From Roseibium aestuarii (GTDB lineage Bacteria; Pseudomonadota; Alphaproteobacteria; Rhizobiales; Stappiaceae): a stretch of 64,000 nucleotides of DNA. Below the pieces are notes generated by a model. That model did no database searches and was not told where the DNA came from. It was given only the letters and a program-made list of their open reading frames with translations. The position numbers and the translations under genes are program-made. The number at the start of each line of letters is the position of its first letter. Within the stretch, counting starts at the first letter, position 1. Below, one piece after another: positions 6,344-31,581 of this stretch. The stretch spans positions 806,001-870,000 of the forward strand of contig NZ_VORA01000001.1 of NCBI RefSeq assembly GCF_008477545.1, read 5' to 3'.

Positions 6344-6402
6344 AGAAAGAATGGTCGGAGTGAGAGGATTCGAACCTCCGACCCCCTCGTCCCGAACGAG
6401 GT
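6344..6402 (-). repeat. Left att copy: 3' fragment of tRNA-Pro
   Basis: Perfect 59-bp match to 31497-31555. It contains CCA, the acceptor 3' strand, the T arm, the variable loop and the anticodon stem-loop of tRNA-Pro(CGG). It diverges exactly at 6403, so no functional tRNA can form. This is the chromosomal half-site left after integration. Confidence 0.95.
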
Positions 6403-6461: not shown

Positions 6462-7712
6462 TCACCCTTGTTCCGCCAGTTTCATTGGCATTTCATTGGC
6501 ATGTTGTCTGTCTGTTGTCTGCCGGTTTGCCCGTTCCGCCAGCTTGTTGGCAGCGGTCTTCTGGTAGTCTGGGTGATGGTGGGCATATCGCTTTTCGAGC
6601 ACTTCGAGGGACTTCCCGAGATAGCCGGCAGCCTCGGCAAGGTCCACGCCGTCCTGCATCATCCAGGTGGCGGCAGTATGCCGAAGGGTGTGCCGGACAA
6701 TCTTCTTGTCGATTGCCGCCAGGTCGACGACACGCTTGAACGATTTCTTGCAGTCTGGAGGCTTGCCATTGCACTCGACGACGTAGCGGGCACCCGCATC
6801 CCGCCATTCCTTCATCTCCTCAACCAGAGCCTTGGCGAGGGGAATGGTCGGCTTCCGCTTGTTCTTGAACTCGATTGCTCCCGGTGGACGGCGATAGAAC
6901 AGGCCGTTTTCGAGATCGACCCAGGGGCGTCCTTCTTCCCGGACAAAGCTTGCTTCGCATACGACCGAGCTGCGCGACCCGTTCATGACCGCGACGCGAA
7001 TGAATCTTTCGACATGAGCCAGGGGCCGCTTTGATGTGGAGACCTTCTGACCTTTGCGTAGGCCCTTATGGATTGTCTGTATCTCGGTTGTGTTGCGCGC
7101 AATCTGGCAAAGCAGCTCGACTTCTGCCTCCGTTAGCCACCCTTCGCGGCCTGGATTGGCAGGCGGAAGAAAGACGGTCACAGGTTCGCTCAGGATGCCG
7201 TCTGCCATGGCCAGCCTGATGGCCGCGCGCAAGTCTTCGAGTTCGCGCCTTGCACCAGCAGGTGTGGGCGTTCGCGAGGGGAACGCGATGGCCTGCTGGC
7301 GCATCCGGGTCTCGACATAGTCCTTGCAAGTGACCGAGGAAATATAATCGCAGCTCTCGTGCCCCCAGAACGTGGCGAGCTTTTCAACGCGCTGACCGAG
7401 CTCCCGGGGGCGGGCAATCTTGCGCCCCTATACTTCCAGGTAACGGGCGAGAACCTCGGCAATGAGGAGGTTCTCTGCCGTGCGCCGGCGTGTTGAACGG
7501 GTGGTTTCCTGGCGGCTTTTCTCCGCCAGGTATGCGTTCAGTGCTGCTTCAGCTCCAGCAGCATCGTCTGCAGTACATCCGGTGCTAAGTTGCTGCTTGC
7601 CGTCGAGGATGACCCAGGTCGCCGGCCGCTGCGGGCTGCCAGCTTTTGCCTTGCGGGCAGGTCGGAGCCACAAGCGGGCCGGTTTTGATGGGCGCGACAA
7701 TTCTCTCTCCAT
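6462..7712 (-). pseudogene. Tyrosine recombinase (island integrase), interrupted by in-frame TAG
   Basis: Integrase of the island, read from 7712 down to 6462. The N-terminal part (LWLRPARKAKAG, ATWVILDGKQQLSTG) resembles the start of rhizobial island integrases. The C-terminal catalytic part has HTLRHTAATWM and the terminal Tyr region LEKRYAHHHPDY. Between them, TAG at 7428-7430 follows RYLEV. The same frame then continues GRKIARPRELGQRVEKLATF through to the Met at 7304, so this is one nonsense change, not a frameshift. A fragment starting at 7304 would lack the DNA-binding N terminus. The gene overlaps the excisionase-like frame upstream. Its last codons contain the repeat pair at 6480-6501. 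Amber read-through or a base-call error could restore a protein of about 416 residues. Confidence 0.85.
6480..6501 (+). repeat. Left pair of 11-bp putative integrase arm sites
   Basis: TTTCATTGGCA occurs twice in tandem (6480-6490 and 6491-6501), 77 bp inside the left att copy and within the 3' end of the integrase gene. The same pair recurs at 31401-31423 near the right end. Arm-type recombinase sites are the likeliest explanation. Confidence 0.6.
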
Positions 7713-8753: not shown

Positions 8754-8984
8754 TTATTTCTCGCCCTCGCGGAGGCCAATGCCTATGGCCCCGGACATCA
8801 GAAACTCGATGCCCGCATCCTCTATCGCCCGCTTGAGATCGTGAAGCGTTCGGTCATGGGGAACCGACTTTTCCAGCTCAAAAGAGGCAATCGCCCTTTT
8901 TGAAACCAGAGAAGCCTTTGACAGGTCCTCCTGGGACCAGCCGAGCCAGGCTCTCGCCGCACGGCACTGTTTTGCATTAATCAT
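8754..8984 (-). CDS. Xre-family helix-turn-helix regulator
   Basis: A 76-residue single-domain regulator. The helix-turn-helix spans about residues 7-60: ARAWLGWSQEDLSKASLVSK forms the two helices and RAIASFELE the recognition part, followed by LHDLKRAIEDAGIEF, typical of short Xre proteins. It is divergent from the nuclease-like gene at 9074. The 90-bp gap between them holds repeated AT-rich motifs, so it probably represses itself and that operon. It resembles control proteins of restriction-modification and toxin systems. Confidence 0.8.
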   Translation of the reverse strand: MINAKQCRAARAWLGWSQEDLSKASLVSKRAIASFELEKSVPHDRTLHDLKRAIEDAGIEFLMSGAIGIGLREGEK

Positions 8985-9014
8985 ATATTTACCATGATCT
9001 TCATCTTAACTTGC

Positions 9015-9076
9015 TAAATTGCATTAAAAATGCTCTTTTGCATCTGTCGTTAAATTGCAAAAAGGCATTAAAAATG
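9015..9076. promoter_or_regulatory. Repeated operator-like motifs in the Xre/nuclease divergent region
   Basis: TAAATTGCA occurs at 9015-9023 and 9051-9059, and GCATTAAAAATG at 9021-9032 and 9065-9076. The second GCATTAAAAATG ends on the start codon of the downstream gene. The region is much more AT-rich than its surroundings. Direct repeats between an Xre gene and its divergent partner are typical operators; binding by this Xre protein is inferred. Confidence 0.5.
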
Positions 9077-9979
9077 AATATTTCAAATCTTGAGTACACC
9101 GATTCCGCCGATAAATTCCAGATCCCGGAAGAACTATGTGAGGCGGTCGATACCGCTCTGGATGAAGTGTTCTCAAAAACCTTTGCGAATGATGAGCTTT
9201 TTGGGGAGGCCCTGACGCAGGTCCGTGGGCCGCTGGACAGCCTCTGCAAAAGGCATGGGATTCTGATCGAACATGCGATCGCCGCAGCTTTTGCTAATGC
9301 CGGCGATGGTCGTTTTGAGGTGCAGACCCAGGTCCCTGTAACCGTCTCCAAATCTGTCGAAGCTTTGATCGAGGCCAATGGGGAGGCAAGCCTCGACGGC
9401 ATCCATATACCGCCAATCGATGCCAGCGGGCGTAGGGTCATCATCGACATCGTCGTATTCGACCGGGACAGTGGCGATCTGCATGTGATTTCGGTCAAGC
9501 GGGGTGGGGGCGCCCAGAGCGGTCAGGCCGCTCGGGAGGCTCGCAAGGATCTGGCTGCTGCCGGACTGCTGCTGAAGTTCTTGATGCTTAGCCAAGGCCT
9601 CCCTGTGCGAAATATTCGGCAGATCATGGTCGACTGGTATGGGAAATCCGGTGTCGTGGCGCGTAAATCCATCAATCGGCACTCGATCGATGGCCATTTC
9701 GGCATCCCGATCCGGGTCTATGTAGAAGGGATGTCCGAACGGCTGTCTACGGGGATCACGAGCCGGATGCAGCCGCTGCTGCGAGCAGCCCTTTATCCAA
9801 GTTCTCCGCAAACAGAGCCTGAAAGCAAGACTGCTGAAGAGGCCACAGTAGCTCGGTTGATCTCCGTTGATGACGCTCCCGAATTCACCAGGCCCACGGC
9901 CACCCTTGCCGATTGCCTCGCCGTCCTGCCAGCCCGCCGTCAGGGGCGCCAGATGCGGGCCGTGATTGCGGCCGCTTAG
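9074..9979 (+). CDS. Putative PD-(D/E)XK-like nuclease of unknown system
   Basis: A 301-residue protein that I do not recognise by name. The central part is nuclease-like: Glu66 in a helix (HGILIEHAIAAAF), Asp125 at the end of a strand (VIIDIVVFD), then a strand ending in VISVKRG with Lys142. This order of helix Glu, Asp and x-x-Lys is that of PD-(D/E)XK folds, but the usual acidic residue before the Lys is Ser140, so the call is tentative. The C-terminal 70 residues are low in motifs. ATG 9074 was preferred to ATG 9011 because the upstream codons lie in the regulatory repeats. The gene heads a two-gene unit with the FtsH-like gene 102 bp downstream and is divergent from the Xre gene. Confidence 0.55.
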   Translation: MNISNLEYTDSADKFQIPEELCEAVDTALDEVFSKTFANDELFGEALTQVRGPLDSLCKRHGILIEHAIAAAFANAGDGRFEVQTQVPVTVSKSVEALIEANGEASLDGIHIPPIDASGRRVIIDIVVFDRDSGDLHVISVKRGGGAQSGQAAREARKDLAAAGLLLKFLMLSQGLPVRNIRQIMVDWYGKSGVVARKSINRHSIDGHFGIPIRVYVEGMSERLSTGITSRMQPLLRAALYPSSPQTEPESKTAEEATVARLISVDDAPEFTRPTATLADCLAVLPARRQGRQMRAVIAAA

Positions 9980-10081
9980 AGCCGCAAGACGTGGGGCAGG
10001 CGGCCTCTCGCTCCGGTCCGGATCCAAGAATTTTCCGAAACCAAATTTATTTCACCGACGCCAGACCTGACGTCGGCAACC

Positions 10082-12031
10082 ATGAGCAAAGTAATGACTT
10101 CATTTTATCGCAGCTACTATCGCCGTGAGCGCCCGGATTTTCTCTTGTTTTTAGCCCATTGCATTGTGCGGCGCGCTCTTCGAACGCTACACAACACACC
10201 CCGGGGGGCGTGGCCCGTCGTCGGCATCGTTGCCGATGATCTTGGGGTGCCCGTCACGCATGTCCATACGGCGCTAGGCGTCGAGATGCTCCGGGATTAC
10301 GGTGACATTGCCGGCATGCGGCTCGACCGGAGCATCCGCCTCCTCGACTATTCCGGCGAGGGCCGCGTGGAGGATGAGGAGCTCCGGTCCGCCCTGGGGT
10401 CACGGCGGGCTGTGATCGCAATGGCTCGATGCACCGCCAATCTGCCGGAGCTGTTGGTTGCGGCCTCTGATGGAGTTTTTGTTCTCGAACGTCCGACTGT
10501 CCGGCATATCCAGGCCGCAGCACGCCATTGCAATCGGGTCCTCCTGTCCGATGCGGACGCCGAGAAGCTGAGTGATCTCCCGATCGGTGACCTGGCTCTC
10601 ATTCTCAATCGAGGCCGCAAATGGCGGTCTGTCTTCGAAGCCTATGATGCCCAGAGGAGCGAACCACAACCTCTCACTGCCCCCGCGAAACGCGAGCTGG
10701 ATCTGGACAACATACCGGGTCTGGCAGGCGCGGGCCTGTGGGGGCGTGATCTCTGTCAGGATCTCGCTGACTGGCGAGCGGGAAAGATCGGCTGGGCCGA
10801 TGTCGATGGCGGCGCGCTGCTGGTTGGAGCCCCTGGCACAGGAAAGACTACCTACGCCCAGGCTCTGGCGCGCTCTGCAGGGTGTCATCTGGAAGCGACC
10901 TCGGTGGCCCAATGGCAGTCGAGAGGGCATCTCGGAGATATGCTCAGGGCGATGAGACGAAGTTTTGCCGAGGCTAAAAAGTCCGCGCCGACCATCCTTT
11001 TTCTGGACGAGCTGGACGCCGTCGGTGCCCGCCACACGGCACGAGGCGATCACGCCCGCTATCAGATCGAGGTGATCAACGGTCTGCTGGAGTGTCTGGA
11101 TGGGGTCCAGGACCGGGAGGGTGTCGTGGTCCTCGGCGCGTGCAATCACGCGCATATGATCGATCCGGCAATCCTGAGACCGGGTCGGATGGAGCGCATT
11201 ATCGAGCTGCCGCTGCCTGATGCAGAGGCGCGAGAGAAAATCCTGCGTTTCCACCTAAACGCTGACCTCGCAGACAGCGATCTCTCCAACGTCGCCAAGA
11301 AAATGGAAGGTCGCACTGGTGCTGACATCGAGCTGATGGCCCGCGAAGCACGTCGCTCTGCCCGACGCGCGAGACGTGCCATGGACCTCGCGGATCTGCT
11401 CCAACGGCTTCCGAAAACCACAAAGTTAAGTGATGAGGATCTGCGTCGCATCGCAGTTCATGAAGCTGGACATGCTGTGGTTCATCTCGCGCTAAGACCG
11501 GAGCCGATCGGGAGCATACGGATCAATGATGAGGTTCCTGAAACGGCTAACTCTGTGTTGGCCGGTGGCGTCTCGGTTGAGATCCTCTCCCATCAATGCC
11601 GCACGAAGGGCGACTACGAGGCCATGCTTGCAGTCCGTATGGCCGGTCTGGCAGCAGAGGAGGTAGTTTTGGGAAACATCAGCGATGGTGGCGGAGGAGG
11701 TGAGGGATCAGACCTGTCCTGTGCAACCCAACTGGCCACGGAGATGGTAACCAGCATGGGCTTTGGGGAAAGCTGGCTGCATCTGGCGACGCCTGGAGAA
11801 CTCGCAGGACGTCGTATGCTCATGGGGGATGCGAGGGTCCGTGCTGAAGTTGACCAGCTTCTCAATAACGCTTTTGAACGGGCCAGGAGCCTCATCCGGC
11901 AGCAGGCGGGATTGCACCAGCGGCTGGTCGAGGAACTGTTGGAAAAGCGAGCTCTCAGGAACGTAGAGATTGCCCGGCTCATCGAGGGGTGCACGACAAG
12001 AGAGCAGGGGAGGATGGTCTGCCGGGTCTGA
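10082..12031 (+). CDS. Soluble FtsH-like AAA+ ATPase / M41 zinc metallopeptidase
   Basis: A 649-residue protein with an AAA+ module: Walker A GAPGTGKT at 249-256, Walker B ILFLDELDA at 305-313, sensor/Arg-finger region RPGRMER at 366-372. A peptidase M41 domain follows, with the zinc motif HEAGH at 460-464 and a likely third ligand, Asp544, in EGSDLSCATQLATEMV. Unlike FtsH it has no N-terminal membrane helices. Residues 1-200 form an unfamiliar domain (GIVADDLGVPVTHVHTALG and a later LVAASDGVFVLERPTV). It is likely a cytosolic ATP-dependent protease acting with the nuclease-like protein encoded 102 bp upstream, perhaps to degrade it or activate it. The chromosomal ftsH is not implied, since gene context and N terminus differ. 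The start at 10082 lacks a strong ribosome-binding site; ATG 10094 is possible. Confidence 0.85.
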   Translation: MSKVMTSFYRSYYRRERPDFLLFLAHCIVRRALRTLHNTPRGAWPVVGIVADDLGVPVTHVHTALGVEMLRDYGDIAGMRLDRSIRLLDYSGEGRVEDEELRSALGSRRAVIAMARCTANLPELLVAASDGVFVLERPTVRHIQAAARHCNRVLLSDADAEKLSDLPIGDLALILNRGRKWRSVFEAYDAQRSEPQPLTAPAKRELDLDNIPGLAGAGLWGRDLCQDLADWRAGKIGWADVDGGALLVGAPGTGKTTYAQALARSAGCHLEATSVAQWQSRGHLGDMLRAMRRSFAEAKKSAPTILFLDELDAVGARHTARGDHARYQIEVINGLLECLDGVQDREGVVVLGACNHAHMIDPAILRPGRMERIIELPLPDAEAREKILRFHLNADLADSDLSNVAKKMEGRTGADIELMAREARRSARRARRAMDLADLLQRLPKTTKLSDEDLRRIAVHEAGHAVVHLALRPEPIGSIRINDEVPETANSVLAGGVSVEILSHQCRTKGDYEAMLAVRMAGLAAEEVVLGNISDGGGGGEGSDLSCATQLATEMVTSMGFGESWLHLATPGELAGRRMLMGDARVRAEVDQLLNNAFERARSLIRQQAGLHQRLVEELLEKRALRNVEIARLIEGCTTREQGRMVCRV

Positions 12032-14189: not shown

Positions 14190-16277
14190 TTAACCGACCT
14201 TCTCAAGTGAGGGCTGGGAGAAACCTTCATTCAATAGCGCCGTAAGGGCCGTTATTGCCAGTGCGCATTGCTTGTCAGTCGGCATTCTTCGTGGGATTGC
14301 AGCACAGGTTTCGAGGATGCCGATATCCCTAGGTGTCAGGAGCCCATGTTGTCGTGCCCAGGTGACTGCACTTGCCCAATAATCCGCCCCATACTGATGA
14401 ACCAGAATTTGGGCATTGGCAGCCGCATCAACGGCTTTGCTCGCACGGGCAGCCCTTTCGGTTTCCTTCGCAATCTCGATCGGGACAAGGACATGTTCCT
14501 GCTCTTCAGGGTAGTCGAAGGACTTGCTCCGAAGCTGATTCCAGCAGGCTTGCTTTTTCGCCCATTCGCTCAGGTTTCGTACACCTGCAAGTGGATTGAG
14601 TATTGTCTCCTGAGCTTGTTCACCCGCCACGCTAAGGACGGACCTTAGGTCGTCAGAAATTTCCTGTCGTCGCCAGATTTGATCGAGATCCAGCACCATG
14701 CCTGCCTTTTCGGCATCATGAACCAGTTTTGCGATTGAATAGGTGACGATGTTGGCCCTGTATCCTCCTTCGTACCATTCGGCATTGGAGATAAGAGTTT
14801 CAGTCCGCTTGAACACGATGGCTTTTGCGATCAACCGTTTGAACCATAGCTCGTCAAAGGACGTCCCCTCTTCCCCCCACCGCTTTTCAAGGCTTTTCGC
14901 GAATTCTCCGAAGTTTTTTTGAGCCCCGCAACTTACGATGTAAGGCAAACCGGACCACGTGTTCTCAAATTTTGCCAAGTCTGTTTTGGTGAGAAATTGC
15001 GAGCGAGGAAATTCCGCGTCGAATTTCTTTTTTTCGGCGTCGGTACGGCGGCTTCTTTCATCGGCAAACTGTCCGCGTGCCCGCTCGTAGAACCACTTGG
15101 TCTCCCGATAGTTATCGGTGCGGGCCGGGGCAAGGATTCGCCGTGAAAGCTCTTCGACCTTGATATGGAAGGGGTGGTTCGCGAAAAAGTCTGCGGCATT
15201 CACTTTGTTCTGGCTGTTGGCGAACTCCGAGATCTTTGGAACAATCCTTTCGGACTGTTCCGGGGGGACAATTGTCAGTTTCATCTGGACGTGAACCTGC
15301 CCAATCTGCTCAGCCAACGTCTTTCGAGCCGCATGGATGGATGCAGTTGTTTGTCCGCCATTGACGATTTGCAGGTTTTCGGCCTGCTGGAGTTCAAGAC
15401 CGTTTTCAGTCTGCCTGATCTCTACATTGCTAGCGGTGGCACTCAGGCCGTTGTTGTACGAGAAAAACATTTTCGGCTCATCGCGTATTGTGTCACGTAT
15501 CCCGCGATTAACCTTGCCCCTCGCTTGCAGAAAACTGCGCACGTTCGCTTCGAGAAGTCGAGGACCCCACTTGTCGTAAATCTTGGAGAGCTGCTGACCT
15601 GGTATGACGGCGAGATAGCTTTCCAGGGAGCCGTCCCCACCTGAGGCGCGGAGTAAAGGAATGCCGCCGCCGAAGTCTTTCTCGAAATTGATAGACAGGT
15701 TGGCGCGTGCCTGGCCTTGATCCATGTATTTCTTAATGCGTTTGAGATCCCAGAGACTGAAGGTTACAGGCACTCCATTGATCTCAGAAATCTTGATCGC
15801 ATCTGCATTGCCGCGCGCATCTGCATTCGAAATGATTAGAAGTTGAACTTTCTCGACCTGCTTCCAAGTTGATGCGATGAGATCTGCAACTCCAAAGGCA
15901 GCGCTTGTCTCCTCAAGCTCCTCTCGAAAGTTATGTTTCCGTGACATTTCCAGGAAACGATAGACGCGGTTTACAAGTCTTTCGATCTTTGCCTTGTCAA
16001 TGGTCCGTATTTGTTTGCCTAGCTCAAAGTCGCATAATATTAGGCTCAAAATACCGTCGCAGTCCCTAGGATCGCCACCATAGCCATCAAGTTGGATCCG
16101 CTTTTGAAGGGCATTGTTATCGAAGTAGGCACGCGAGGCGCTGTCGATCTCACCAGCTTCCGTAATGAGCTCTCCGATCTTCTCGAAAAAGGCTTCCGAA
16201 GTTATCAGTCCAAATGCATCTGCATCTCCCTGAATGTCGGCAATCAGTTGGTGGTGAAATTCTTCCAGCTCGCTCAT
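14190..16277 (-). CDS. AIPR-family protein (Mza-type defence operon)
   Basis: A 695-residue protein of the abortive-infection phage resistance (AIPR) family. Recognition rests on the central FFSYNNGLSATASNVEI followed by IVNGGQTTASIHAARK, a conserved AIPR block. The biochemical role of the family is not settled; many members sit next to DNA methyltransferases. It is the last gene of a four-gene minus-strand operon, and its ATG overlaps the preceding stop as ATGA. The base composition is more AT-rich than the chromosomal flanks. Gao et al. (2020) described a defence set with MutL-like, Z1, DUF4420 and AIPR proteins, which fits this neighbourhood. Confidence 0.88.
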   Translation of the reverse strand: MSELEEFHHQLIADIQGDADAFGLITSEAFFEKIGELITEAGEIDSASRAYFDNNALQKRIQLDGYGGDPRDCDGILSLILCDFELGKQIRTIDKAKIERLVNRVYRFLEMSRKHNFREELEETSAAFGVADLIASTWKQVEKVQLLIISNADARGNADAIKISEINGVPVTFSLWDLKRIKKYMDQGQARANLSINFEKDFGGGIPLLRASGGDGSLESYLAVIPGQQLSKIYDKWGPRLLEANVRSFLQARGKVNRGIRDTIRDEPKMFFSYNNGLSATASNVEIRQTENGLELQQAENLQIVNGGQTTASIHAARKTLAEQIGQVHVQMKLTIVPPEQSERIVPKISEFANSQNKVNAADFFANHPFHIKVEELSRRILAPARTDNYRETKWFYERARGQFADERSRRTDAEKKKFDAEFPRSQFLTKTDLAKFENTWSGLPYIVSCGAQKNFGEFAKSLEKRWGEEGTSFDELWFKRLIAKAIVFKRTETLISNAEWYEGGYRANIVTYSIAKLVHDAEKAGMVLDLDQIWRRQEISDDLRSVLSVAGEQAQETILNPLAGVRNLSEWAKKQACWNQLRSKSFDYPEEQEHVLVPIEIAKETERAARASKAVDAAANAQILVHQYGADYWASAVTWARQHGLLTPRDIGILETCAAIPRRMPTDKQCALAITALTALLNEGFSQPSLEKVG

Positions 16278-17260
16278 TGCTCAGGCCCCTCCCGGACCAG
16301 TTCTGTCAGGCTTTGGCTAATTTCAAAAGGCGTGCAGGCATCAAGTGCGAGTTGGTACCTTACGTTCTCTATCCCGTGTGGCAGATCGGCGGCAATTCGG
16401 GGAAAGCCATCTCTGACCTCGTAGACAGTTGTATTGCCGACTACCCAGCGTCGCTCGTCATAGGCGTCGTCTGGGTCGTATCCCGTCGAAAACAGGGTTT
16501 CTTCCCACATGTCAAAAATGGAGCCCGGGTTCTCAAACAACTTCGAAGTTGCGCGAACATGGTCGTGAAGGTTCTCGCCTTCGGGTGATACAACTGACGT
16601 TATATTGGTAACTCTCAAATACAGTCGGCAGCCGGGTACATCCGCAAGCTGATGCTCGGAGGAAATGGAGACAAAGGGGCGGGCGGCCGCACGCTTCGTC
16701 TTGATCTCGACACATGATGTTGTGAATTCGAAATCCTTTGGCGCTCCCCTGGGGCCTGTCCATGCGTTGATAGCTATCTGAGGTCCAAGTGACAAAGCGA
16801 CTTCACGGAGGAACGTGAGCTCTCCGACAAGTCCTTGTTGTTCCTCCAGCGTAAGGCTAGACGCTCTTCCTCCTCGCATTAGCCGGTGCCAACGAAGCAG
16901 CCGGCGTATTGTTCGGGAAAGCGCATCCTCCAGACTGACACCCACTTCTCCCGCGGCAACGACATCCCGGCAGAGTATCTGGAAAACTTCTAGCTGGCTC
17001 AGATCCTTGAGACCGACGAAAAGTGCTGCACCTCCGGTCAGGGACCTGAAGGATATTTGCAGATCCTTGAGTTTCGGCAGTTGGGGGAGAGGCCGAGGAA
17101 GGGAGGCCAAGCGTAGCATCAACCCCGGCATGCCCAATTCTGGCAGGGCCCAGAAGAAGTCGAATTTTCCGGCACTGTCCACTCGACGAGCATCGCCGGG
17201 TTCGAGTTTTTCCCATGGATCAAGAGGCTTCAAGTTCGGCCTCCAAATCTTCGTCTTCAT
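16274..17260 (-). CDS. PD-(D/E)XK motif protein, DUF4420-like
   Basis: A protein of about 328 residues, third in the MutL-Z1-DUF4420-AIPR operon. A nuclease-like core is visible: GLVGELTFL (Glu in a helix), then PKDFEFTTSCVEIKTKRA, giving Asp, Glu-x-Lys in the PD-(D/E)XK arrangement. DUF4420 proteins in this context are predicted nucleases that accompany Z1 ATPases. ATG 17260 was chosen; the frame also has a TTG at 17272. Either start overlaps the 3' end of the Z1 gene by 41-53 bp, and the stop overlaps the AIPR start by 4 bp, so translation is probably coupled. Confidence 0.8.
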   Translation of the reverse strand: MKTKIWRPNLKPLDPWEKLEPGDARRVDSAGKFDFFWALPELGMPGLMLRLASLPRPLPQLPKLKDLQISFRSLTGGAALFVGLKDLSQLEVFQILCRDVVAAGEVGVSLEDALSRTIRRLLRWHRLMRGGRASSLTLEEQQGLVGELTFLREVALSLGPQIAINAWTGPRGAPKDFEFTTSCVEIKTKRAAARPFVSISSEHQLADVPGCRLYLRVTNITSVVSPEGENLHDHVRATSKLFENPGSIFDMWEETLFSTGYDPDDAYDERRWVVGNTTVYEVRDGFPRIAADLPHGIENVRYQLALDACTPFEISQSLTELVREGPEQ

Positions 17261-19961
17261 CCTCTTCGCCAAACAGCTCCAGGTACCGAACCGTATTGAC
17301 GATATATTCCACCCGTTCCTGAGGTCGGGCTGAAATCGGAAGGCTCATACCCCAGGCTACTACGGAATCCTCGGAAACCTGTTCCGGACTTTCCAAATCC
17401 AGCTCTTCCGCATCCGGATACTGCAATTTGACAAGCATGATGATGAGGAGTGGACGGGCCCGTTTCTCTCGATAGATCCTGCCGGGGAAGTTGGGTTTTT
17501 TATCGCTGGCTTCAAACCCGGCCAGATAGTCTTCCTCGGCTAACGCGATTTCACCCTGCCCGAGACCTGCCTTTTCGAAACTAGAATCGGCTATGCGCAT
17601 TCGTTTGCCACCAAATGCGATGAAGCCTTTTCGCAAATCCTTAGGGGCGATCGTTCTGGTAATCGGTTTGATTGGAAGACCTATCGACTCCTCGGTTTCG
17701 GTATTGCCGCTCTTGCTGGTTATCAGAACATCCCAGCTTTTAAGCTCGTCGAGCTTCCTGGAATCTATGTACTTTCTAATTGGACCGGGGTTAGTCGTGA
17801 CGCTTTCCTCTGCATTTCGCCAACCAGCAAGAAACTGGTCGACAATCTCGACCGGGACGTGGGTGAAGCAGAAGCCGGCTGAGGCAGGAATTTCGTTGAA
17901 GGCGCCATTGGAAACGGTATTCACAAGGCGAATTGCCAGTTCCTTGTTTGCCTTAAGATCAGCTTCGCTGGAACTGACCCTTGAGGTTTCAACGAACTTG
18001 TTCGAAAGGCCGACAAGCGTTGTCACCTTCTTGCCTGAACCAAGCTTGTTCCTCGCTGTTACAAGCAATGATGCAGGATGGCTCCGTACTGCGAGTCCGA
18101 ACATTTTGGGTGTAGCCTTTGCCTTTTCCATAGTCCGAAGCTCGCGATGGAGTTCTTCGGCTGCCGTGGCAATGTAGGAATACCAGCCTATGGCATCATC
18201 TGGCATCCAGATGCGGCAGAGATCTTCATAACCACCTCGATACCCGAACCACCGGCCCATCTGGAGCAGCGTGTCGTACATCATGGAGTTTCGAAGGAAC
18301 CACGTGATTGTGAGGCCTTCCAGTGTGAGGCCCCGCGAGAGGGAGAACCCGCCGACAGCGATAACTGTCTGGCCGTTGTCCCCTGAAGCGGAATAGTCCA
18401 GATCATTTACCCGGCTATTGACCTCGACAACTCGTGCGGATGCGCAGGCGTCGAGAAGCATGTTCTGAATAGGCTCCCAATTGGGTTCATCCTGGGAGTA
18501 CTCTTCTTCCCAAACGGATTTGAGAGCTCGTATTTCGGGGTCAGCCAGTGCCGCGCTGCCTTTGCTCCCATTAATCCTAATTGAATCAAGGATTTGATCC
18601 AGTGCATCGTGCAGCCGGTTTCGAAGATGGCTTTGAACAGCAGTGAAGCGGCTGGCATTGACGAGCATCGAACAATGAGAGGCCTTTTGACCTCGGAGAT
18701 TTCGGATTGTTCGCGCAAGGAGAAAACATTGAAGGGCCCTTAGGAGCGATTCCGGAAGCACCTCTGGTACATGGGTTATTTTGTGAGTAATTGGCAGTAC
18801 GTCTTGATTGTCCTCAATGTAACGTAGCCATGTTGGCATGCCGTCTTCGGGAAGCCCATCGATAAAAATCTTCTTGGCGCCAAAGTAGTTGGTAGGTGCA
18901 TCTAGACCAATGATGAAGTCGCGCGGGAATAGGTCCTCGCTGTACATCTCATCGTCCTGATCAGGATCGATGAAGATATTCGCGAACGGCGTCGCAGTGT
19001 ATCCAACATAGCAGCTCCGATGAAACATGTTCAGGAGATCGCGAATCTGGCCATTGATCGTTGTGACGAGCTTCTTGCCATACTTGGTGTTGATGGACGC
19101 ATTGTCGGCCTCATCATCGATCAGCAACATGGGCTGATCGATCATCTCCATATCCCCACGGGCGCTGTTATCGCGAAGCCAGTCAAGTAGATTCGCAAGG
19201 GTGCGATGGTTTTTCTTGATCACCAGAACGACCGGGACCTTGTAGGATTCGATCTCGCTCGTATTGGTGGATGCCGTAGATTTGTTGAAGTCCCGAAGTG
19301 TATTTGTCAGACTGACAGGGGTGTTGTTGGGATCAAAATGTCCGACTCCAATGACATGTTTGGCGCCGTTCTTTTTCCTGTCCTGAGACTTGGCGGTATC
19401 CCGGCCTATGAAGCCTTCATCGATCCGGGCTTGTGTCTGATTGCGAAGGTTGTTGTGAATACCCGCAATCACGATGATCAGGCGGTAACCGGCATCGGCT
19501 GCCTTGCAGATAAGGCCAGTATAGTTTGCAGTCTTTCCACTTTGGACATGGCCAACGACCATGCCTCGCCGGTCCCAGGGAACATGCTTGTTCGGATTTC
19601 CAAGTCGCCCGAGAATCTTGTCTGTAACCGTATCGGTTGCGAGCACAACATCTTTCGGAAGTCCATTCTGTAGGAGAAGCTTTCTGTAGCGGCTCCAGTA
19701 AAATGGATCGATAGAGGGTTTGGCATCATCAAGCCAGGGTTCGAAGTCCTCGGCATCAACGACAGCTCCCAGTCCGGCCTTGATTCCCTGCTTAACCTCG
19801 ATTTCACGGGCAAGGGCTTCGAGGGTTTCTTCATCAAGCCCTGGTGCGATAATCCCAGCGAGTTGTCCTATCATCGCTCGAAGTTCGGCTTCGGTTTTGC
19901 GCGGCTGGTCGAACAGGGCGGATTCCACAACGCTTCGCAACTGATCGTATGAATTGGTCAC
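17220..19961 (-). CDS. Z1-domain ATPase/helicase-like protein
   Basis: A 913-residue Z1-domain protein. Residues 136-150 contain the P-loop-like VGHVQSGKTANYTGL, and LLIDDEADNASIN (about 280) is the Walker B/DExx equivalent. Later blocks such as VGGFSLSRGLTLEGLTITWF, LLQMGRWFGYRGGYEDL and the C-terminal acidic tail are typical Z1 features. The family is a superfamily-2-like NTPase expected to move on or remodel DNA. It starts with GTG at 19961, which shares one base with the TAG stop of the MutL-like gene (TAGTG), a strong coupling signal. Confidence 0.9.
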   Translation of the reverse strand: MTNSYDQLRSVVESALFDQPRKTEAELRAMIGQLAGIIAPGLDEETLEALAREIEVKQGIKAGLGAVVDAEDFEPWLDDAKPSIDPFYWSRYRKLLLQNGLPKDVVLATDTVTDKILGRLGNPNKHVPWDRRGMVVGHVQSGKTANYTGLICKAADAGYRLIIVIAGIHNNLRNQTQARIDEGFIGRDTAKSQDRKKNGAKHVIGVGHFDPNNTPVSLTNTLRDFNKSTASTNTSEIESYKVPVVLVIKKNHRTLANLLDWLRDNSARGDMEMIDQPMLLIDDEADNASINTKYGKKLVTTINGQIRDLLNMFHRSCYVGYTATPFANIFIDPDQDDEMYSEDLFPRDFIIGLDAPTNYFGAKKIFIDGLPEDGMPTWLRYIEDNQDVLPITHKITHVPEVLPESLLRALQCFLLARTIRNLRGQKASHCSMLVNASRFTAVQSHLRNRLHDALDQILDSIRINGSKGSAALADPEIRALKSVWEEEYSQDEPNWEPIQNMLLDACASARVVEVNSRVNDLDYSASGDNGQTVIAVGGFSLSRGLTLEGLTITWFLRNSMMYDTLLQMGRWFGYRGGYEDLCRIWMPDDAIGWYSYIATAAEELHRELRTMEKAKATPKMFGLAVRSHPASLLVTARNKLGSGKKVTTLVGLSNKFVETSRVSSSEADLKANKELAIRLVNTVSNGAFNEIPASAGFCFTHVPVEIVDQFLAGWRNAEESVTTNPGPIRKYIDSRKLDELKSWDVLITSKSGNTETEESIGLPIKPITRTIAPKDLRKGFIAFGGKRMRIADSSFEKAGLGQGEIALAEEDYLAGFEASDKKPNFPGRIYREKRARPLLIIMLVKLQYPDAEELDLESPEQVSEDSVVAWGMSLPISARPQERVEYIVNTVRYLELFGEEDEDEDLEAELEAS

Positions 19962-21478
19962 TATGATATTTCCCGGATGAACTCTTTAATAATGGGTTCT
20001 GCTGCGGCCCAATTGTCGCGCAGAAGTTGATGACTTTGCATGATTTCCGAGAGGCTTTCAGGCGATGCGCCGCCTGCAGTGAGCGCCTCTCCTATGGCGC
20101 GAACGAGCAGCTCGAGATCTGCCTTGTCTGCCGCATCGGCGACGACAGCTTCGGCGTTTCCTACAAGTTCCGCATGCAGTGTCTCGATCGGAAGAGACGA
20201 ACCAATCAGGCGCAGACAACGCTGGAAGTCTATATGCAACTCCTCGGGTAACTGCGCGGAGAATGTCTGAAAAACCGGATGCTCGAGGTTCGGTCGAAAA
20301 ATGACATGGCCGTCTTTGAGTACCCGGTTCCAGACAGGAAGTCTGGTTTCATCAACAAGCTTCTGTCCTCTTCGCTGGTATGTTCTCTTGGACGTTCCGA
20401 CAAAGCGCTCGATAACTTTTTTCAGTCGTTCACGCACCACGGGAGGAAGCTGGGCTGAGGCCTTTTTGACGTCGATCTTCCAGTCCGCGTCCATTGTATT
20501 TGGTATATCGACAGAAATCCTGCAGAGCTTGGTTAGCTCGGTCTGTTTCGCGAGGCCGAGCCAGCTACCGGCAATAATTAGTCTGTCTTCACGATAGACA
20601 TAAAGACCCTGGGATTTTAGGTGACCTTCGGGACCACCAAGTTCGTTCCACTGTTCTTTTGAGACCATCTTGTGGTGCGGGAGCGTCCTGCAGCGAACTT
20701 TCACAACACCTTGCTCTAGAACAATCTCGTCCGGCGGGTCCCATTGCCCAGATGTTGAATCCTTTGCCATTGGATCGATCGGCGTCAACCGTCTTCCATT
20801 CAGGAAGAGCTTGAGCCGGGGGTTGTTTCCCTCAAGAAAGCGATGAAACACCAACCTGAGGTGTCGTTCAGCGCGCGACAGTTCAGAATTGAGGGTGGCC
20901 GTACGTTTGACCGGATCATCGGCGTGACCGCCCATCATCCGGTCCAGGTTGTCCCAAAACACAACGGTACCACTAGATGCCAGAAGGTAGCTTCTTCCCA
21001 AGGGGTCCGGGTCATCTATGAGTTCGAGAGTCCAGTCGTTTTCTCTCGCGATCCTGTCGAGATTCCATTGGGCACATGCCAAAGCGTCACGATGACGTGT
21101 CATAACGGTTAGACATCGGCATTGCGAGAAACTCGCACTTTTCATCCCGAGGCCGAACCGTCCAAGGTCGCGGGGCGTGCGCATCGAGGTAGGGTTCTTG
21201 GCGCCCAGTCTCATTGCCTCAACGAGATCATGCTCGGTCATACCGCAGCCATCATCGATGATTGCAAGCCAAGGAGTTTCTGAAGTTGTTTCTGCAACCA
21301 ACTTAACCTCGGAAGCATTGGCGGAAATCGAGTTATCGATAATATCTGCCAATGCTGTCTCCAGGTTGTATCCAAAGTCGCGATGGCCCTCGATGAGGGC
21401 GGAAGCATACGGCGTTGCATCAACCTTTCTGGTTTGCAATACCTTGTTTGAGTTTGACGAAATGGATGTTGGCAGCAT
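19961..21478 (-). CDS. MutL-like GHKL ATPase (Mza-type defence operon)
   Basis: First gene of the operon. The protein has about 505 residues with a GHKL ATPase domain: N-box ADIIDNSISANA (about 44-55), DDGCGMTEHDL (75-85) and GRFGLGMKSAS (106-116). These are the motifs shared by MutL, Hsp90 and MORC proteins. A transducer-like region follows, then an alpha-helical C terminus without the MutL endonuclease motif. It is expected to act as an ATP-driven clamp or sensor for the Z1/nuclease partners. The start is uncertain: ATG 21478 is used, and an in-frame TTG lies at 21505. The 165 bp upstream are AT-rich and should hold the operon promoter. Confidence 0.88.
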   Translation of the reverse strand: MLPTSISSNSNKVLQTRKVDATPYASALIEGHRDFGYNLETALADIIDNSISANASEVKLVAETTSETPWLAIIDDGCGMTEHDLVEAMRLGAKNPTSMRTPRDLGRFGLGMKSASFSQCRCLTVMTRHRDALACAQWNLDRIARENDWTLELIDDPDPLGRSYLLASSGTVVFWDNLDRMMGGHADDPVKRTATLNSELSRAERHLRLVFHRFLEGNNPRLKLFLNGRRLTPIDPMAKDSTSGQWDPPDEIVLEQGVVKVRCRTLPHHKMVSKEQWNELGGPEGHLKSQGLYVYREDRLIIAGSWLGLAKQTELTKLCRISVDIPNTMDADWKIDVKKASAQLPPVVRERLKKVIERFVGTSKRTYQRRGQKLVDETRLPVWNRVLKDGHVIFRPNLEHPVFQTFSAQLPEELHIDFQRCLRLIGSSLPIETLHAELVGNAEAVVADAADKADLELLVRAIGEALTAGGASPESLSEIMQSHQLLRDNWAAAEPIIKEFIREIS

Positions 21479-21672
21479 TGAATTTGTCACACGAGGAATC
21501 CGCAAATATTAAATATATCAGAGCCTAATGGTAGCCGTCTCGCAAGGTCCGCATTGGCCTCTGGTATTGGAACGGCGGCGCATCCAGACGGGGCCCGGCT
21601 AAGCCTAAAAAACTTTGATTAGATACGCGTATAAGTAGGCGGACACCAAATTGATAAGTATTGCTGTTGAAC

Positions 21673-24643: not shown

Positions 24644-24693
24644 GCCTCTTATTGAGGTGATTCGCATTCTGGTTGTAGAATTTTGGTGTGCAT

Positions 24694-27600
24694 ATGAAAA
24701 TGTCGGGCGAAGAAATCCTGCTTTCCGCTACGGATCTCATGCGTTTCATGGGGTGTCGCCACGCGACTGCTCTGGATCTCGCTTATGGTGGCGGCGCAGA
24801 TCTCGTCCCTTGTGCCGACAGCGAGGATGCCGAGCTCCTGCAACGCCATGGCGATGCCCATGAGGCCGCCCATCTGGCGAAACTCAAGACCCGCCATGTG
24901 GACGTCATCGAGATCGAGCGAGGAAACCTTGCCGACAAGGCGGAAGAGACGAAGGCAGCTCTTCGCACGGGTGCAAGTGTCATCTTCCAGGGCGCTTTCT
25001 TTGGCGCTGCCGACCTGCCGGGGATTTCCTGGGGCGGCTGGTCCGACTTTCTGGAGCGGGTAGAGACGCCTTCGAATCTCGGTGCTTTCAGCTATGAGGT
25101 CAGCGACACCAAGCTGAAGCGCCGCGCTCACCCGAAGCATGTGCTGCAGCTTGTCCTCTATTCCGATCTCCTGACCGATCTTCAGGGCCGGGCACCCGAC
25201 TTCGCCCATGTGGAGCTCGGCGACGCCAGCCGCGCCACCCTGCGCCTTGCCGACTATCGCTACTATGCCCGCCGCGCCCGCAAGCGGCTGGAAGCCTTCG
25301 TGCGAGAGCCGTCCGCCACGCGGCCGATCCCCTGCAGCGATTGCGGCCTCTGCCGCTGGCGCGACCACTGTGCGGCAACCTGGAAGGCCGAAGACAGCCT
25401 GTTCCAGGTCGCCAACATCATGAAGACCCAAGTCAAGAAGCTCGAGCGCGCCGACATCCGCACCCTTGAACAATTGTCGGAAGTGACCGGCCGGGTGCGC
25501 GGCATCGGCGAGGGGACCCTGGACCGGCTGAAGGGGCAGGCGCGCCTGCAGCAGGCCCGCAAGACCGGCGAGCCGGCCTTCGAGCTGCGCCCCCGCCAGT
25601 TGGGCAAGGGCTTTGCGCTCCTGCCGCATCCCCAGCCGGGCGATCTCTTCTATGATATCGAGGGCGATCCGCACTATGAGGGCGGACTGGAATACCTGCA
25701 CGGCCTCTGGTTCGACGGCACCTTCAAGCCCTTCTGGGCCCATGATCACAAGGCCGAAGCCGAAGCCCTGCGCGATTTGCTGGAATTCTTCCGAAAGCGG
25801 CTGGAGCAGTACCCGCAGGCCCGCATCTATCACTATGCCCCTTACGAGGTGACGGCACTCCGCCGCCTCACCACAAAATACGGCATTGGCGAAGCCTTCC
25901 TGGATCGCCTGCAGCGGGAAAGCCGCTTTGTCGATCTCTATGCGGTGGTGCGCGGCGGCATCCAGATTTCCGAGCCGAACTATTCCATCAAGTCGCTGGA
26001 GGTCTTCTATGGCATCGAGCGTTCCGGCGAGGTGAAGACCGCCGGTGGCTCCGTCGTCGCCTACGAGGCCTGGCGCGAGAACGCCGACCAGCAGATCCTC
26101 GACGAGATCGAGGACTACAACCGCATCGATTGTGTCTCAACGGAAGCCTTGCGCGACTGGCTGGTCGGCATCCGCCCGGACGAGGACTGGTCGGTTCTGG
26201 AGGCGAATGCCGCCCCGAAACAGGCCGAGGAAGATGAGAAGGTGGCAGCCTTGCGGGCCCGCCTCGAAGCCTCGGATCTATCACCCGAGCGCCAGGAGCT
26301 TCTGTTCAATCTCGGCCTCTTCCATGGGCGCGAGCAGAAGCCTGCGCAATGGGCGGTGTTCGACAGCACCAGCCGGGAGGAGGATGAACTGATCGAAGAC
26401 CTCAACACCCTCGGTGGCCTGCGGGCCTGGGGCGAGGCGATCCCGGTCAAGCGTTCTTTCGCTCGCACCTATCAATATCCGGAACAGGACACCAAGCTGC
26501 GCAAGGGCGATCAGGCCACTGTACCGGTGATCGATGGCGCTCCGGCTCGGGTCACGATCGAGGACATGGACCCCGAGCGGCGACTGGTGACCGTGAAGGG
26601 CGGTCCGAAGCTGGCGCATCTTCTGGAAGACACCCTGTCTCTGCATCCGGACTGGCCGCTGGAAACCGATGTGATCGCCTCGGCCCTCCGCAATGTCATT
26701 GCCGATCAGTGTGACGACAAGGCCTATCGCGCGGTCGAGGATCTGCTCTCCCGCTCCAACCCCCGACTGAAGGGTTGGACAGGCGACATCTTCAAGGGCG
26801 AGGACACGGTTGCCGGAACCATTGCTGCGGTGACACGAATGGACGAGACCGTCCTGCCTATCCAGGGGCCTCCGGGCACCGGCAAGACCCATGTCAGCGC
26901 CCGCGCCATCCTGTCTCTGGTGCAGGCTGGCTACCGGGTCGGCGTTGCCTCCAACAGCCACGAGGCCATCCGCAATGTTCTCCTGGGCTGTGAAACGGCC
27001 ATGGGAGAATTCTCGTTCCCGCGCAAGCCTAAAATTCTGCACAAGGTCGGAAGGGGCAGCCAAGGATATCCCGATGAAAGCGTCATTTGGGCGGTGACCG
27101 ACAACGAGGAAGCGGAGGAAAATGGCGCCATCGTCGGCGGCACGGCCTTCTTCTTTGCCAGACCCAACAACATCCAGGCCTTCGACTGGCTCTTTGTCGA
27201 TGAAGCCGGGCAGGTCAGCCTTGCCAACATGCTGGCCATGGGCCGGGCGGCACGCAACATCGTGCTGGTTGGCGATCCCTGCCAGTTGCCGCAGGTCATT
27301 CAGGGCTCTCATCCGGAACCGGCCAATCTCTCCTGCCTCGAATACATGCTCGGCGACCATCAGACAGTCCCGCCCGAGCAGGGCATCTTCCTCCCCATCA
27401 GCCGCCGCATGCATCCGGACGTCTGTTCCTTCATTTCCGAGCAGGTCTATGAGGATCGCCTGACGAGCCACCACGACACCGCCCTGCAGGACGTGGTTGC
27501 GGACGGTCTGCCCGAGGCCGGGGCCTGGTGGGTTCCGGTCGAGCATGAGGGCAATGCCCAGGTCGCCCGCGAGGAAGTGGCGGAGATCAGGCAGATCATC

Positions 27601-27993
27601 TCCACGCTGGTGGACGGAATCTGGACCGGCAAGGACGGTCGCACGCGGCCCCTGACCCACGAGGACATCATCATTGTCGCGCCCTTCAGCGCCCAGGTGA
27701 ATGCCCTGCGCGAGGCACTGCCGGAAGGTATCCGGGTTGGCACGGTCGACAAGTTCCAGGGCCAGGAAGCCCCGGTCTGCATCGTCTCCATGACGGCATC
27801 CTCCGCCGAGGACGCACCGCGCGGCATGGATTTTCTTTATTCGCTCAACCGCATCAACGTCGCCGTCTCCCGCGCCAAGGGCCTGGCGCTGGTGGTCGGC
27901 AGTGATCGGCTGTGCGAGGCCAAATGCGAGACCATCGCACAGATGAAACAGGTGAACACGCTCTGTGCGTTGAAGGAATGGGGTGGGGAATGA
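24694..27993 (+). CDS. RecB-like nuclease / RNase H-like / SF1 helicase fusion (TM0106-type)
   Basis: A multidomain protein of about 1099 residues. The N-terminal part looks like a TM0106/RecB-type PD-(D/E)XK nuclease (SDTKLKRRAHPKHVLQLVLYS) with a Cys cluster, CSDCGLCRWRDHC, that could bind an Fe-S cluster or zinc. A YprB-like RNase H fold follows (FYDIEGDPHYEGGLEYLHG). The C-terminal half is a DNA2/Upf1-like SF1 helicase: Walker A QGPPGTGKTH (about 724), VDEAGQVS, GDPCQLPQV, VGTVDKFQGQEAP and NVAVSRAKG. Starts at GTG 24688, ATG 24694 or ATG 24700 are possible. Its stop overlaps the mcrB start as ATGA, so it is translated together with McrBC. Confidence 0.88.
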   Translation: MKMSGEEILLSATDLMRFMGCRHATALDLAYGGGADLVPCADSEDAELLQRHGDAHEAAHLAKLKTRHVDVIEIERGNLADKAEETKAALRTGASVIFQGAFFGAADLPGISWGGWSDFLERVETPSNLGAFSYEVSDTKLKRRAHPKHVLQLVLYSDLLTDLQGRAPDFAHVELGDASRATLRLADYRYYARRARKRLEAFVREPSATRPIPCSDCGLCRWRDHCAATWKAEDSLFQVANIMKTQVKKLERADIRTLEQLSEVTGRVRGIGEGTLDRLKGQARLQQARKTGEPAFELRPRQLGKGFALLPHPQPGDLFYDIEGDPHYEGGLEYLHGLWFDGTFKPFWAHDHKAEAEALRDLLEFFRKRLEQYPQARIYHYAPYEVTALRRLTTKYGIGEAFLDRLQRESRFVDLYAVVRGGIQISEPNYSIKSLEVFYGIERSGEVKTAGGSVVAYEAWRENADQQILDEIEDYNRIDCVSTEALRDWLVGIRPDEDWSVLEANAAPKQAEEDEKVAALRARLEASDLSPERQELLFNLGLFHGREQKPAQWAVFDSTSREEDELIEDLNTLGGLRAWGEAIPVKRSFARTYQYPEQDTKLRKGDQATVPVIDGAPARVTIEDMDPERRLVTVKGGPKLAHLLEDTLSLHPDWPLETDVIASALRNVIADQCDDKAYRAVEDLLSRSNPRLKGWTGDIFKGEDTVAGTIAAVTRMDETVLPIQGPPGTGKTHVSARAILSLVQAGYRVGVASNSHEAIRNVLLGCETAMGEFSFPRKPKILHKVGRGSQGYPDESVIWAVTDNEEAEENGAIVGGTAFFFARPNNIQAFDWLFVDEAGQVSLANMLAMGRAARNIVLVGDPCQLPQVIQGSHPEPANLSCLEYMLGDHQTVPPEQGIFLPISRRMHPDVCSFISEQVYEDRLTSHHDTALQDVVADGLPEAGAWWVPVEHEGNAQVAREEVAEIRQIISTLVDGIWTGKDGRTRPLTHEDIIIVAPFSAQVNALREALPEGIRVGTVDKFQGQEAPVCIVSMTASSAEDAPRGMDFLYSLNRINVAVSRAKGLALVVGSDRLCEAKCETIAQMKQVNTLCALKEWGGE

Positions 27994-31496: not shown

Positions 31497-31555
31497 AGAA
31501 AGAATGGTCGGAGTGAGAGGATTCGAACCTCCGACCCCCTCGTCCCGAACGAGGT
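31497..31555 (-). repeat. Right att copy within intact tRNA-Pro
   Basis: This 59-bp sequence is identical to 6344-6402. It runs from 8 bp beyond the CCA end to the 5' side of the anticodon stem, a common crossover zone for tyrosine recombinases. The island therefore supplied the 3' half of the present tRNA gene. Confidence 0.95.
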
Positions 31556-31581
31556 GCGCTACCAGGCTGCGCTACACTCCG
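31505..31581 (-). tRNA. tRNA-Pro (CGG)
   Basis: A 77-nt tRNA including the encoded CCA. The acceptor stem pairs CGGAGTG with CACTCCG. The anticodon stem CCTCG/CGAGG closes the loop TTCGGGA with anticodon CGG. The T arm contains GGTTCGAATCC. It serves as the island's integration site, and its 3' half is duplicated at 6352-6402. Confidence 0.97.

What the first reader, a model, noticed from the sequence alone, without database searches (positions are those of the whole stretch)
8754..12031. Candidate new system: Xre regulator, nuclease-like protein and soluble FtsH-like protease
A divergent Xre gene faces a nuclease-like protein (Glu66, Asp125, Lys142) and an AAA-M41 protease with no membrane helices and a novel 200-residue N-terminal domain. 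I recall no named defence system with an FtsH-type protease of this form. A possible logic is that the protease senses infection through its N domain and cleaves or releases the nuclease or a host target.
Basis: inference. Interest (0 to 1): 0.8.

Follow-up and report, generated by a model that had tools for sequence, protein, structure and literature searches.

The report
Nuclease–protease cassette in a defence island
A mobile stretch of bacterial DNA rich in anti-virus genes carries a conserved three-gene unit, made of a small DNA-binding switch, a probable DNA-cutting enzyme and an unusual soluble protein-shredding machine, that looks like an undescribed defence module in which the shredder controls the cutter.

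Summary
An Xre gene (8754-8984, -) diverges from a nuclease-like gene (9074-9979, +), followed by a soluble AAA-M41 protease (10082-12031, +). The five strong outside homologues first found carry all three genes; a broader profile found two more nucleases, both beside the protease. The nuclease matches no Pfam, PADLOC or NCBIfam model, but its predicted fold is PD-(D/E)XK-like (weak matches). The protease's 'novel' N-domain is probably a degenerate AAA domain. The cassette lies in a 25.2-kb element in tRNA-Pro with MZA-like, McrC and Dcm/Vsr genes; three relatives lie beside Lamassu, DISARM or Cas6 genes. The nuclease's C-terminal tail is its most conserved part (73% against 54% core, 10% linker), suggesting that the protease recognises it. 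Best reading: an effector nuclease restrained by a dedicated protease; mechanism and defence are untested. Against a strict pair: at least 8 of 83 protease places have the nuclease, 0 of 40 others examined, and nuclease relatives also pair with a protease-less Lon-like ATPase or a putative phage methyltransferase.

The parts
6344..6402 (.). left end repeat of the integrated element (copy of the 3' part of tRNA-Pro)
   Evidence: 59-bp exact direct repeat with 31497-31555
6462..7304 (-). tyrosine integrase of the element
   Evidence: Phage_integrase PF00589 E 3.3e-12
8754..8984 (-). Xre/HTH_3 regulator, 76 aa, similar in sequence to restriction-modification control proteins
   Evidence: HTH_3 E 4.8e-6; PADLOC Control_protein E 1.9e-6; homologue at the same place in 5 of 5 first cassettes
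9021..9033 (.). operator-like element GCATTAAAAATGC in the divergent promoter region (inferred)
   Evidence: GCATTAAA shared with L012, L013 and L042, a one-base variant (GCATCAAA) in L011; function not tested
9074..9979 (+). nuclease-like protein P0003, 301 aa, PD-(D/E)XK-type core with D125 and S140-V-K142
9899..9958 (+). conserved C-terminal tail of the nuclease (residues 276-295)
   Evidence: mean pairwise identity 0.73, against 0.10 for the linker and 0.54 for the core, over 7 rows
10082..12031 (+). soluble AAA-M41 (FtsH-type) protease P0001, 649 aa
10199..10681 (+). N-terminal domain of the protease: probable degenerate AAA domain without a Walker A motif (residues 40-200)
   Evidence: model secondary structure; hhalign with its own AAA domain E 2.2e-4 and 4.5e-4 in register
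10787..11407 (+). active AAA ATPase domain (residues 236-442)
   Evidence: PF00004 E 2.3e-30
11426..11986 (+). M41 zinc protease domain (residues 449-635), HEAGH intact
   Evidence: PF01434 E 4.8e-19; ligands invariant in 13 of 13 rows
31497..31555 (.). right end repeat of the element, overlapping tRNA-Pro(CGG) 31505-31581

Best explanation
It is a mobile defence cassette. Shown: an Xre gene divergent from a gene for a PD-(D/E)XK-like protein, which is followed by a soluble AAA-M41 protease with intact catalytic motifs; the three are kept together in related genomes and, in several of them, lie among defence genes. Inferred: the Xre protein represses the divergent promoter, much as restriction-modification control proteins do. 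The protease, a ring with one active and one degenerate AAA domain, continuously captures the nuclease by its conserved C-terminal tail, unfolds and degrades it, so that free nuclease stays low. Infection blocks, occupies or overwhelms the protease (or derepresses the operon), the nuclease accumulates and cuts DNA of the phage or of the infected cell. The protease would thus act as the antitoxin.
For: Conservation of the unit: 5 of 5 strong outside homologues carry Xre and protease; nuclease and protease identities between 9 cassettes correlate at r 0.90, reached by 0 of 2000 permutations. Nuclease: predicted alpha-beta-beta-beta-alpha-beta core; many of the leading Foldseek matches are restriction-like or other nucleases (R2 endonuclease, Bax1, RecB, MunI, Bse634I), all weak. 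Tail: more conserved than the catalytic core, behind a poorly conserved linker. A divergent protease-linked nuclease group has its own shared ending (FARR in L230 and L072, YARR in L231), while seven short-form relatives in whose fetched stretch neither the M41 nor the Lon-like ATPase was found end within 0-3 residues of the core (L048, L050, L051, L055, L056, L058, L059). FtsH recognises a C-terminal degron of nonpolar residues in LpxC (PMC12444477, passages seen), and in type VI toxin-antitoxin systems an ATP-dependent protease is the constitutive brake on the toxin (PMC5812544, passages seen). Defence context.
Against: No experiment. No interface prediction between the two proteins was run. 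Two protease-linked nucleases (L060, L061) have only 10 and 18 residues after the core and no comparable tail. One linked nuclease (L053) lacks the catalytic lysine. Relatives without the M41 protease in the fetched stretch (L016, L044-L047) also have long C-terminal extensions, with other endings. In L045, L047 and L054 the AAA partner is Lon-like and shows no protease domain, so proteolysis is not always part of the partnership. The protease often occurs without this nuclease: 0 of 40 further protease loci have it. Fold matches did not reach E 0.001.
Confidence: 0.4

Rival explanations
1. Proteolytic activation: the nuclease is made inactive, and infection switches the protease on, which removes or remodels the C-terminal tail and frees the nuclease. 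This is closest to the first reader's proposal.
For: Same anatomy: conserved tail behind a variable linker, co-conserved protease, defence neighbourhood.
Against: FtsH-type proteases are processive and degrade rather than trim as a rule (recalled); no conserved cleavage-like site was sought; the tail is a short linear motif rather than an inhibitory domain.
Confidence: 0.2
2. Motor model: the AAA ring acts mainly as an unfoldase or remodeller that loads or activates the nuclease on DNA or attacks phage complexes, in the manner of AAA plus nuclease pairs such as McrBC; the protease activity is secondary.
For: Some nuclease relatives pair with a Lon-like AAA ATPase without a protease domain (L045, L047, L054); in L230 and L231 the M41 domain is encoded apart from the AAA gene.
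Against: The HEXXH residues and D544 are invariant in 13 of 13 rows, so proteolysis is under selection in that set; no DNA-binding domain was found in the protease.
Confidence: 0.2
3. Not defence as such: an addiction or maintenance module of integrative elements and plasmids, or a weapon between mobile elements, in which the nuclease punishes loss of the protease.
For: Patchy presence (own genome plus 4 of 36 same-genus genomes); integrase and end repeats; related M41 proteases on 38 plasmid records at E 1e-45 or better, some of which may be other FtsH-type proteins, one of them near Tn7-like genes.
Against: Placement near several unrelated defence systems.
Confidence: 0.15

Closest known systems
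FtsH, ATP-dependent zinc protease (TIGR01241)
   Same: AAA plus M41 order, HEXXH and third ligand; phmmer to solved FtsH structures such as 2ce7 E 1.3e-46
   Different: No apparent membrane segment, probable degenerate AAA domain in front, FtsH_fam score 195 against a curated cut-off of 600
IetAS defence system
   Same: AAA ATPase plus protease in defence islands; P0001's AAA domain matches IetA profiles (E 9.1e-28); a paper reports an FtsH extracellular domain profile in ietA (PMC10924106, passage seen)
   Different: IetS is a subtilisin-type protease (recalled; the search for it found no paper). Here the protease is M41 on the same chain and the partner is a nuclease-like protein
Type VI toxin-antitoxin (SocAB with ClpXP)
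   Same: Works like it in the best reading: a toxin held down by an ATP-dependent protease (PMC5812544, passages seen)
   Different: SocB targets DnaN and is not described as a nuclease there; it is degraded by ClpXP with SocA as adaptor; here the protease itself is encoded in the cassette
Restriction endonucleases with a (S/T)xK motif (Bse634I, SgrAI, Cfr10I; motif recalled)
   Same: Weak fold matches to Bse634I and SgrAI; S140-V-K142 in the window's clade
   Different: No sequence match among solved structures beyond chance; 16 of 24 relatives have E, N or D at position 140; no cognate methyltransferase shown for this gene
McrBC
   Same: AAA motor plus PD-(D/E)XK nuclease (recalled); an McrC gene is in the same element
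   Different: Different AAA class, M41 protease present, no family match

Membership tests
PD-(D/E)XK nuclease superfamily | alpha-beta-beta-beta-alpha-beta core | tested here: met
   Predicted order of elements H44-75, E81-91, (H93-102), E120-130, E135-141, H150-173, E180-186; block pLDDT 68-95 over residues 41-190; a prediction, not a solved structure
PD-(D/E)XK nuclease superfamily | catalytic Asp and (D/E)xK lysine | tested here: met
   D125 24 of 24, K142 23 of 24; position 140 is E in 9, S in 8 (window included), N in 4, D in 3 of 24, so the window's own clade departs from (D/E)xK at that position
PD-(D/E)XK nuclease superfamily | significant match to a known member | tested here: inconclusive
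   Foldseek best E 6.7e-3, none at 0.001 or below; best Pfam hit among 24 members E 0.016 to an unrelated family
PD-(D/E)XK nuclease superfamily | DNA cleavage activity | not testable with these tools
   needs a bench assay
FtsH / M41 family | AAA domain with Walker A and B and M41 zinc site | tested here: met
FtsH / M41 family | N-terminal membrane anchoring (canonical FtsH) | tested here: not met
   maximum 19-residue hydropathy 1.35; FtsH_fam equivalog cut-off not reached
IetAS | IetA family membership | tested here: not met
   only the AAA part matches; NCBIfam IteA_antiphage 90 bits against a cut-off of 510
IetAS | subtilisin partner IetS | tested here: not met
   the adjacent partner matches no Pfam or PADLOC family
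Type VI toxin-antitoxin | toxin is degraded by an ATP-dependent protease | not testable with these tools
   tail conservation is indirect
Type II restriction-modification | cognate methyltransferase next to the nuclease | tested here: inconclusive
   The window has Dcm and Vsr on the far side of the protease; six nuclease relatives lie next to a phage-type putative methyltransferase (L048, L055, L057, L058, L059, L128), a name given by eye, with no Pfam match

The most novel reading that the evidence does not exclude
A new kind of defence module in which a dedicated, cassette-encoded soluble protease with an active and a degenerate AAA domain is the antitoxin of an effector nuclease, gating its abundance through a C-terminal tail. 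It would be one branch of a larger modular family in alphaproteobacterial mobile DNA that mixes soluble FtsH-type proteases, Lon-like ATPases, DUF6634 proteins, metallophosphoesterases and PD-(D/E)XK-like nucleases.
Probability: 0.3. Interest if true: 0.85.

Novelty: new variant of a known kind. Interest (0 to 1): 0.66.

Why it matters
If true, it adds direct proteolysis by a cassette-encoded AAA protease to the ways in which bacteria keep a lethal immune nuclease off until infection, and gives a compact three-gene unit in which this can be tested. It also describes a nuclease-like family for which the Pfam and PADLOC copies used here gave no model, and a soluble FtsH-type family that is widespread (51 of 397 genomes of the order match the N-domain/AAA profile, some over the AAA start only) and was found near defence genes several times.

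Tried and rejected
Rejected: that the protease is the housekeeping FtsH (a separate FtsH-like gene exists in the genome). Rejected: that the N-domain is unrelated to known folds (moderate evidence). Considered and dropped: E155 as part of a permuted (S/T)xK...E site, because it is E in only 2 of 24 rows. D159 is D in 18 and E in 3 of 24, and D in all 7 rows of the closest set, so it could supply the missing acidic residue; not tested. Rejected: a strict obligate pair from the protease side (0 of 40 further protease loci have the nuclease).

Led nowhere: nuclease homologues in phage records (no match); two viral-contig scans with single proteins (no relative); PDB sequence search with the nuclease profile (four chance-level hits); PHROGs (chance-level only). 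Literature: searches for 'FtsH-like' with 'anti-phage defense', 'peptidase M41' with 'defense island', 'ATP-dependent zinc protease' with 'antiphage' and 'nuclease', 'FtsH-like protease' with 'phage resistance', DUF6634, and two wider sets listed no description of such a system; of their hits I opened a passage of one paper and saw the rest as listings. Only open-licence papers are held, so this is not proof of absence from print.
Full report
What is there. Three genes lie at 8754-12031: a 76-residue Xre regulator on the minus strand (HTH_3 E 4.8e-6), a 301-residue protein starting at ATG 9074 on the plus strand, and a 649-residue AAA-M41 protein at 10082-12031. The gap between the two plus-strand genes is 102 bases, so they are probably co-transcribed (inference). 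The Xre protein's best PADLOC match is to restriction-modification control proteins (E 1.9e-6). The divergent promoter region holds the near-palindrome GCATTAAAAATGC at 9021-9033; GCATTAAA recurs in L012, L013 and L042 and a one-base variant in L011; L014 shows neither.

Conservation of the unit. A search of 61 genomes gave the nuclease in 6: the own genome, four of 36 others of the genus, and one from another family (one weak second hit in that last genome was not pursued). All five outside loci carry both the Xre gene and the protease. A search of 397 genomes of the order gave 15 with the nuclease, and of 385 of the class 10, the own genome counted in both. Of 26 outside nuclease loci whose surroundings I examined (L011-L016, L042-L061), 10 hold the protease nearby; several of these stretches are cut by contig ends, so absence is not always firm. 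Two hits of the class search (L040, with a stop inside, and L041) were not followed. A broader profile on 357 genomes of the order found 12, two of them new, and both new ones lie upstream of a soluble M41 system. Nuclease and protease identities across nine cassettes correlate at r 0.90, a value reached by none of 2000 permutations (L013 and L060 were not in that set); shared ancestry of the hosts contributes to this.

The nuclease. No Pfam, PADLOC or NCBIfam model matches it, and among 24 family members only chance-level Pfam and PHROGs hits appear. The AlphaFold2 model (mean pLDDT 74.7, 13 sequences) has the element order of a PD-(D/E)XK core. Foldseek against the PDB gives no match at E 0.001 or below, but many of the 50 matches shown are nucleases of this kind (R2 retrotransposon endonuclease, Bax1, RecB, MunI, Bse634I, SgrAI, Can2; best E 6.7e-3; their class is recalled). 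Some lower matches are not nucleases (phage neck, V-ATPase). D125 is in 24 and K142 in 23 of 24 rows; L053 lacks the lysine. Position 140 is E in 9, S in 8, N in 4 and D in 3 of 24; the window's clade has S. E66 is kept in 16 of 24 and position 159 is acidic in 21 of 24.

The C-terminal tail. After the core comes a variable linker and then a tail of the type LAxCLSxLPxRRQGRQM. Over seven rows mean pairwise identity is 0.54 for the core, 0.10 for the linker and 0.73 for the tail. Of 24 rows, 13 have 50 or more residues after the core, seven short forms have 0-3 (L048, L050, L051, L055, L056, L058, L059), and four others 5-19 (L049, L054, L060, L061). A divergent protease-linked group (L072, L230, L231) has a different shared ending (FARR or YARR). 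I read the tail as a recognition motif for the protease. Against this, L060 and L061 are protease-linked without such a tail, and L016 and L044-L047 have long extensions although no M41 protease was found beside them.

The protease. Walker-A K255, Walker-B D309/E310, the HEAGH residues and D544 are invariant in 13 of 13 rows. It has no apparent membrane segment and scores far below the FtsH equivalog cut-off (195 against 600). In a larger, looser set 45 of 68 rows met all three motif patterns of a strict text search; I did not resolve the rest, some of which are split genes. The model (mean pLDDT 75.6, pTM 0.43; N-domain lower) shows in residues 40-195 an alternating strand-helix unit followed by four helices. 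Profile comparison aligns this region in register with the sensor-1 to lid part of the protein's own AAA domain (E 2.2e-4 and 4.5e-4 as single comparisons, probability 45 and 33%; controls against the M41 domain 0.18 and 0.21). I therefore take it as a degenerate AAA domain, which would make the enzyme a tandem-AAA protease. This is moderately supported, not proved.

A larger family. With a profile of the N-domain and AAA start, 51 of 397 genomes of the order have at least one match, 83 places in all, some over the AAA start only. At least 8 of the 83 places lie beside the nuclease. I fetched 40 of the other 75: none has the nuclease; 39 show a long M41-family ORF; 13 have a DUF6634-like small gene, 9 a metallophosphoesterase (two of these distant or fragmentary) and 8 an Xre gene (families named). 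The remaining 35 were not examined. Some nuclease relatives instead adjoin a Lon-like AAA ATPase without a protease domain (L045, L047, L054; 'Lon-like' is my reading of the sequence), and two protease loci, L071 and L210, hold both ATPase types. Six relatives adjoin a phage-type putative methyltransferase (L048, L055, L057, L058, L059, L128), named by eye and without a Pfam match.

Defence context. The window cassette lies in a 25.2-kb element at tRNA-Pro(CGG), bounded by an exact 59-bp direct repeat (6344-6402 and 31497-31555), with an integrase beside the left end. Other cargo: Vsr and Dcm, MZA-like MzaB-E (all below the NCBIfam cut-offs), a WYL regulator, an RNase H-like/helicase protein, an AAA_5 protein and McrC. 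Of the other cassettes, L012 adjoins Lamassu LmuA and LmuB and has a PDC-S32 gene nearby, L015 has a DISARM DrmD gene about 2.7 kb away, and L043 adjoins a Cas6 gene; I tested ten chosen neighbours only, from L011-L015 and L043, and found no defence match in L011, L013 or L014; L042 was not tested. The Methylobacterium nuclease relative without the protease lies next to type II CBASS genes. Proteases without the nuclease lie within a few kilobases of CBASS genes or of an S8 peptidase, an ATPase and a Kiwa-like gene. No background rate of defence genes was measured.

How it probably works. I favour restraint: the protease degrades the nuclease through its tail, and infection relieves this. FtsH is reported to recognise a C-terminal degron in LpxC (PMC12444477, passages seen), and SocB is held down by ClpXP (PMC5812544, passages seen). 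Proteolytic activation and a motor role are live rivals, and the Lon-like variants favour the motor view. No step after gene content, motif conservation and predicted fold is shown.

Novelty. The parts are of known kinds; the nuclease has no match in PADLOC-DB 2.0.0 or the Pfam copy used, the protease matches PADLOC only through its AAA domain, and seven literature searches listed no description of the combination. I rate it a new variant of a known kind, with a minority chance of being a new class of protease-controlled immune nuclease.

Noticed in passing
6344-31555: The whole stretch is a 25.2-kb integrative element at the 3' end of tRNA-Pro(CGG) with exact 59-bp end repeats; the cargo that could be named is largely defence-related.
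   Followed up: partly
14190-21505: MZA-like genes (MzaE, D, C, B profiles) near Dcm and Vsr; all score below the NCBIfam equivalog cut-offs and no MzaA was identified among the ORFs tested, so probably a divergent relative.
   Followed up: partly
24688-31288: An RNase H-like/helicase protein, an AAA_5 protein and McrC (PF10117 E 1.5e-71) at the right end of the element.
   Followed up: no
L230 5446-8288 and L231 5559-8640: The AAA part and the M41 protease domain are separate genes; in L231 a DUF6634-like gene lies between them.
   Followed up: partly
L045 4830-9385 and L047 4162-9619: Related nuclease with Xre, Lon-like AAA ATPase without protease domain, metallophosphoesterase and DUF6634-like gene: a possible sister system.
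   Followed up: partly
L048, L055, L057, L058, L059, L128: Short forms of the nuclease next to a phage-type putative methyltransferase, possibly a restriction-modification-like pair.
   Followed up: partly
L053 8265-9266: A protease-linked nuclease relative that lacks the catalytic lysine (ECIRG).
   Followed up: no
L136 and L137 (Rhizobium plasmids): Soluble M41 protease followed by a metallophosphoesterase, within a few kilobases of CBASS genes or of S8 peptidase, ATPase and Kiwa-like genes.
   Followed up: no
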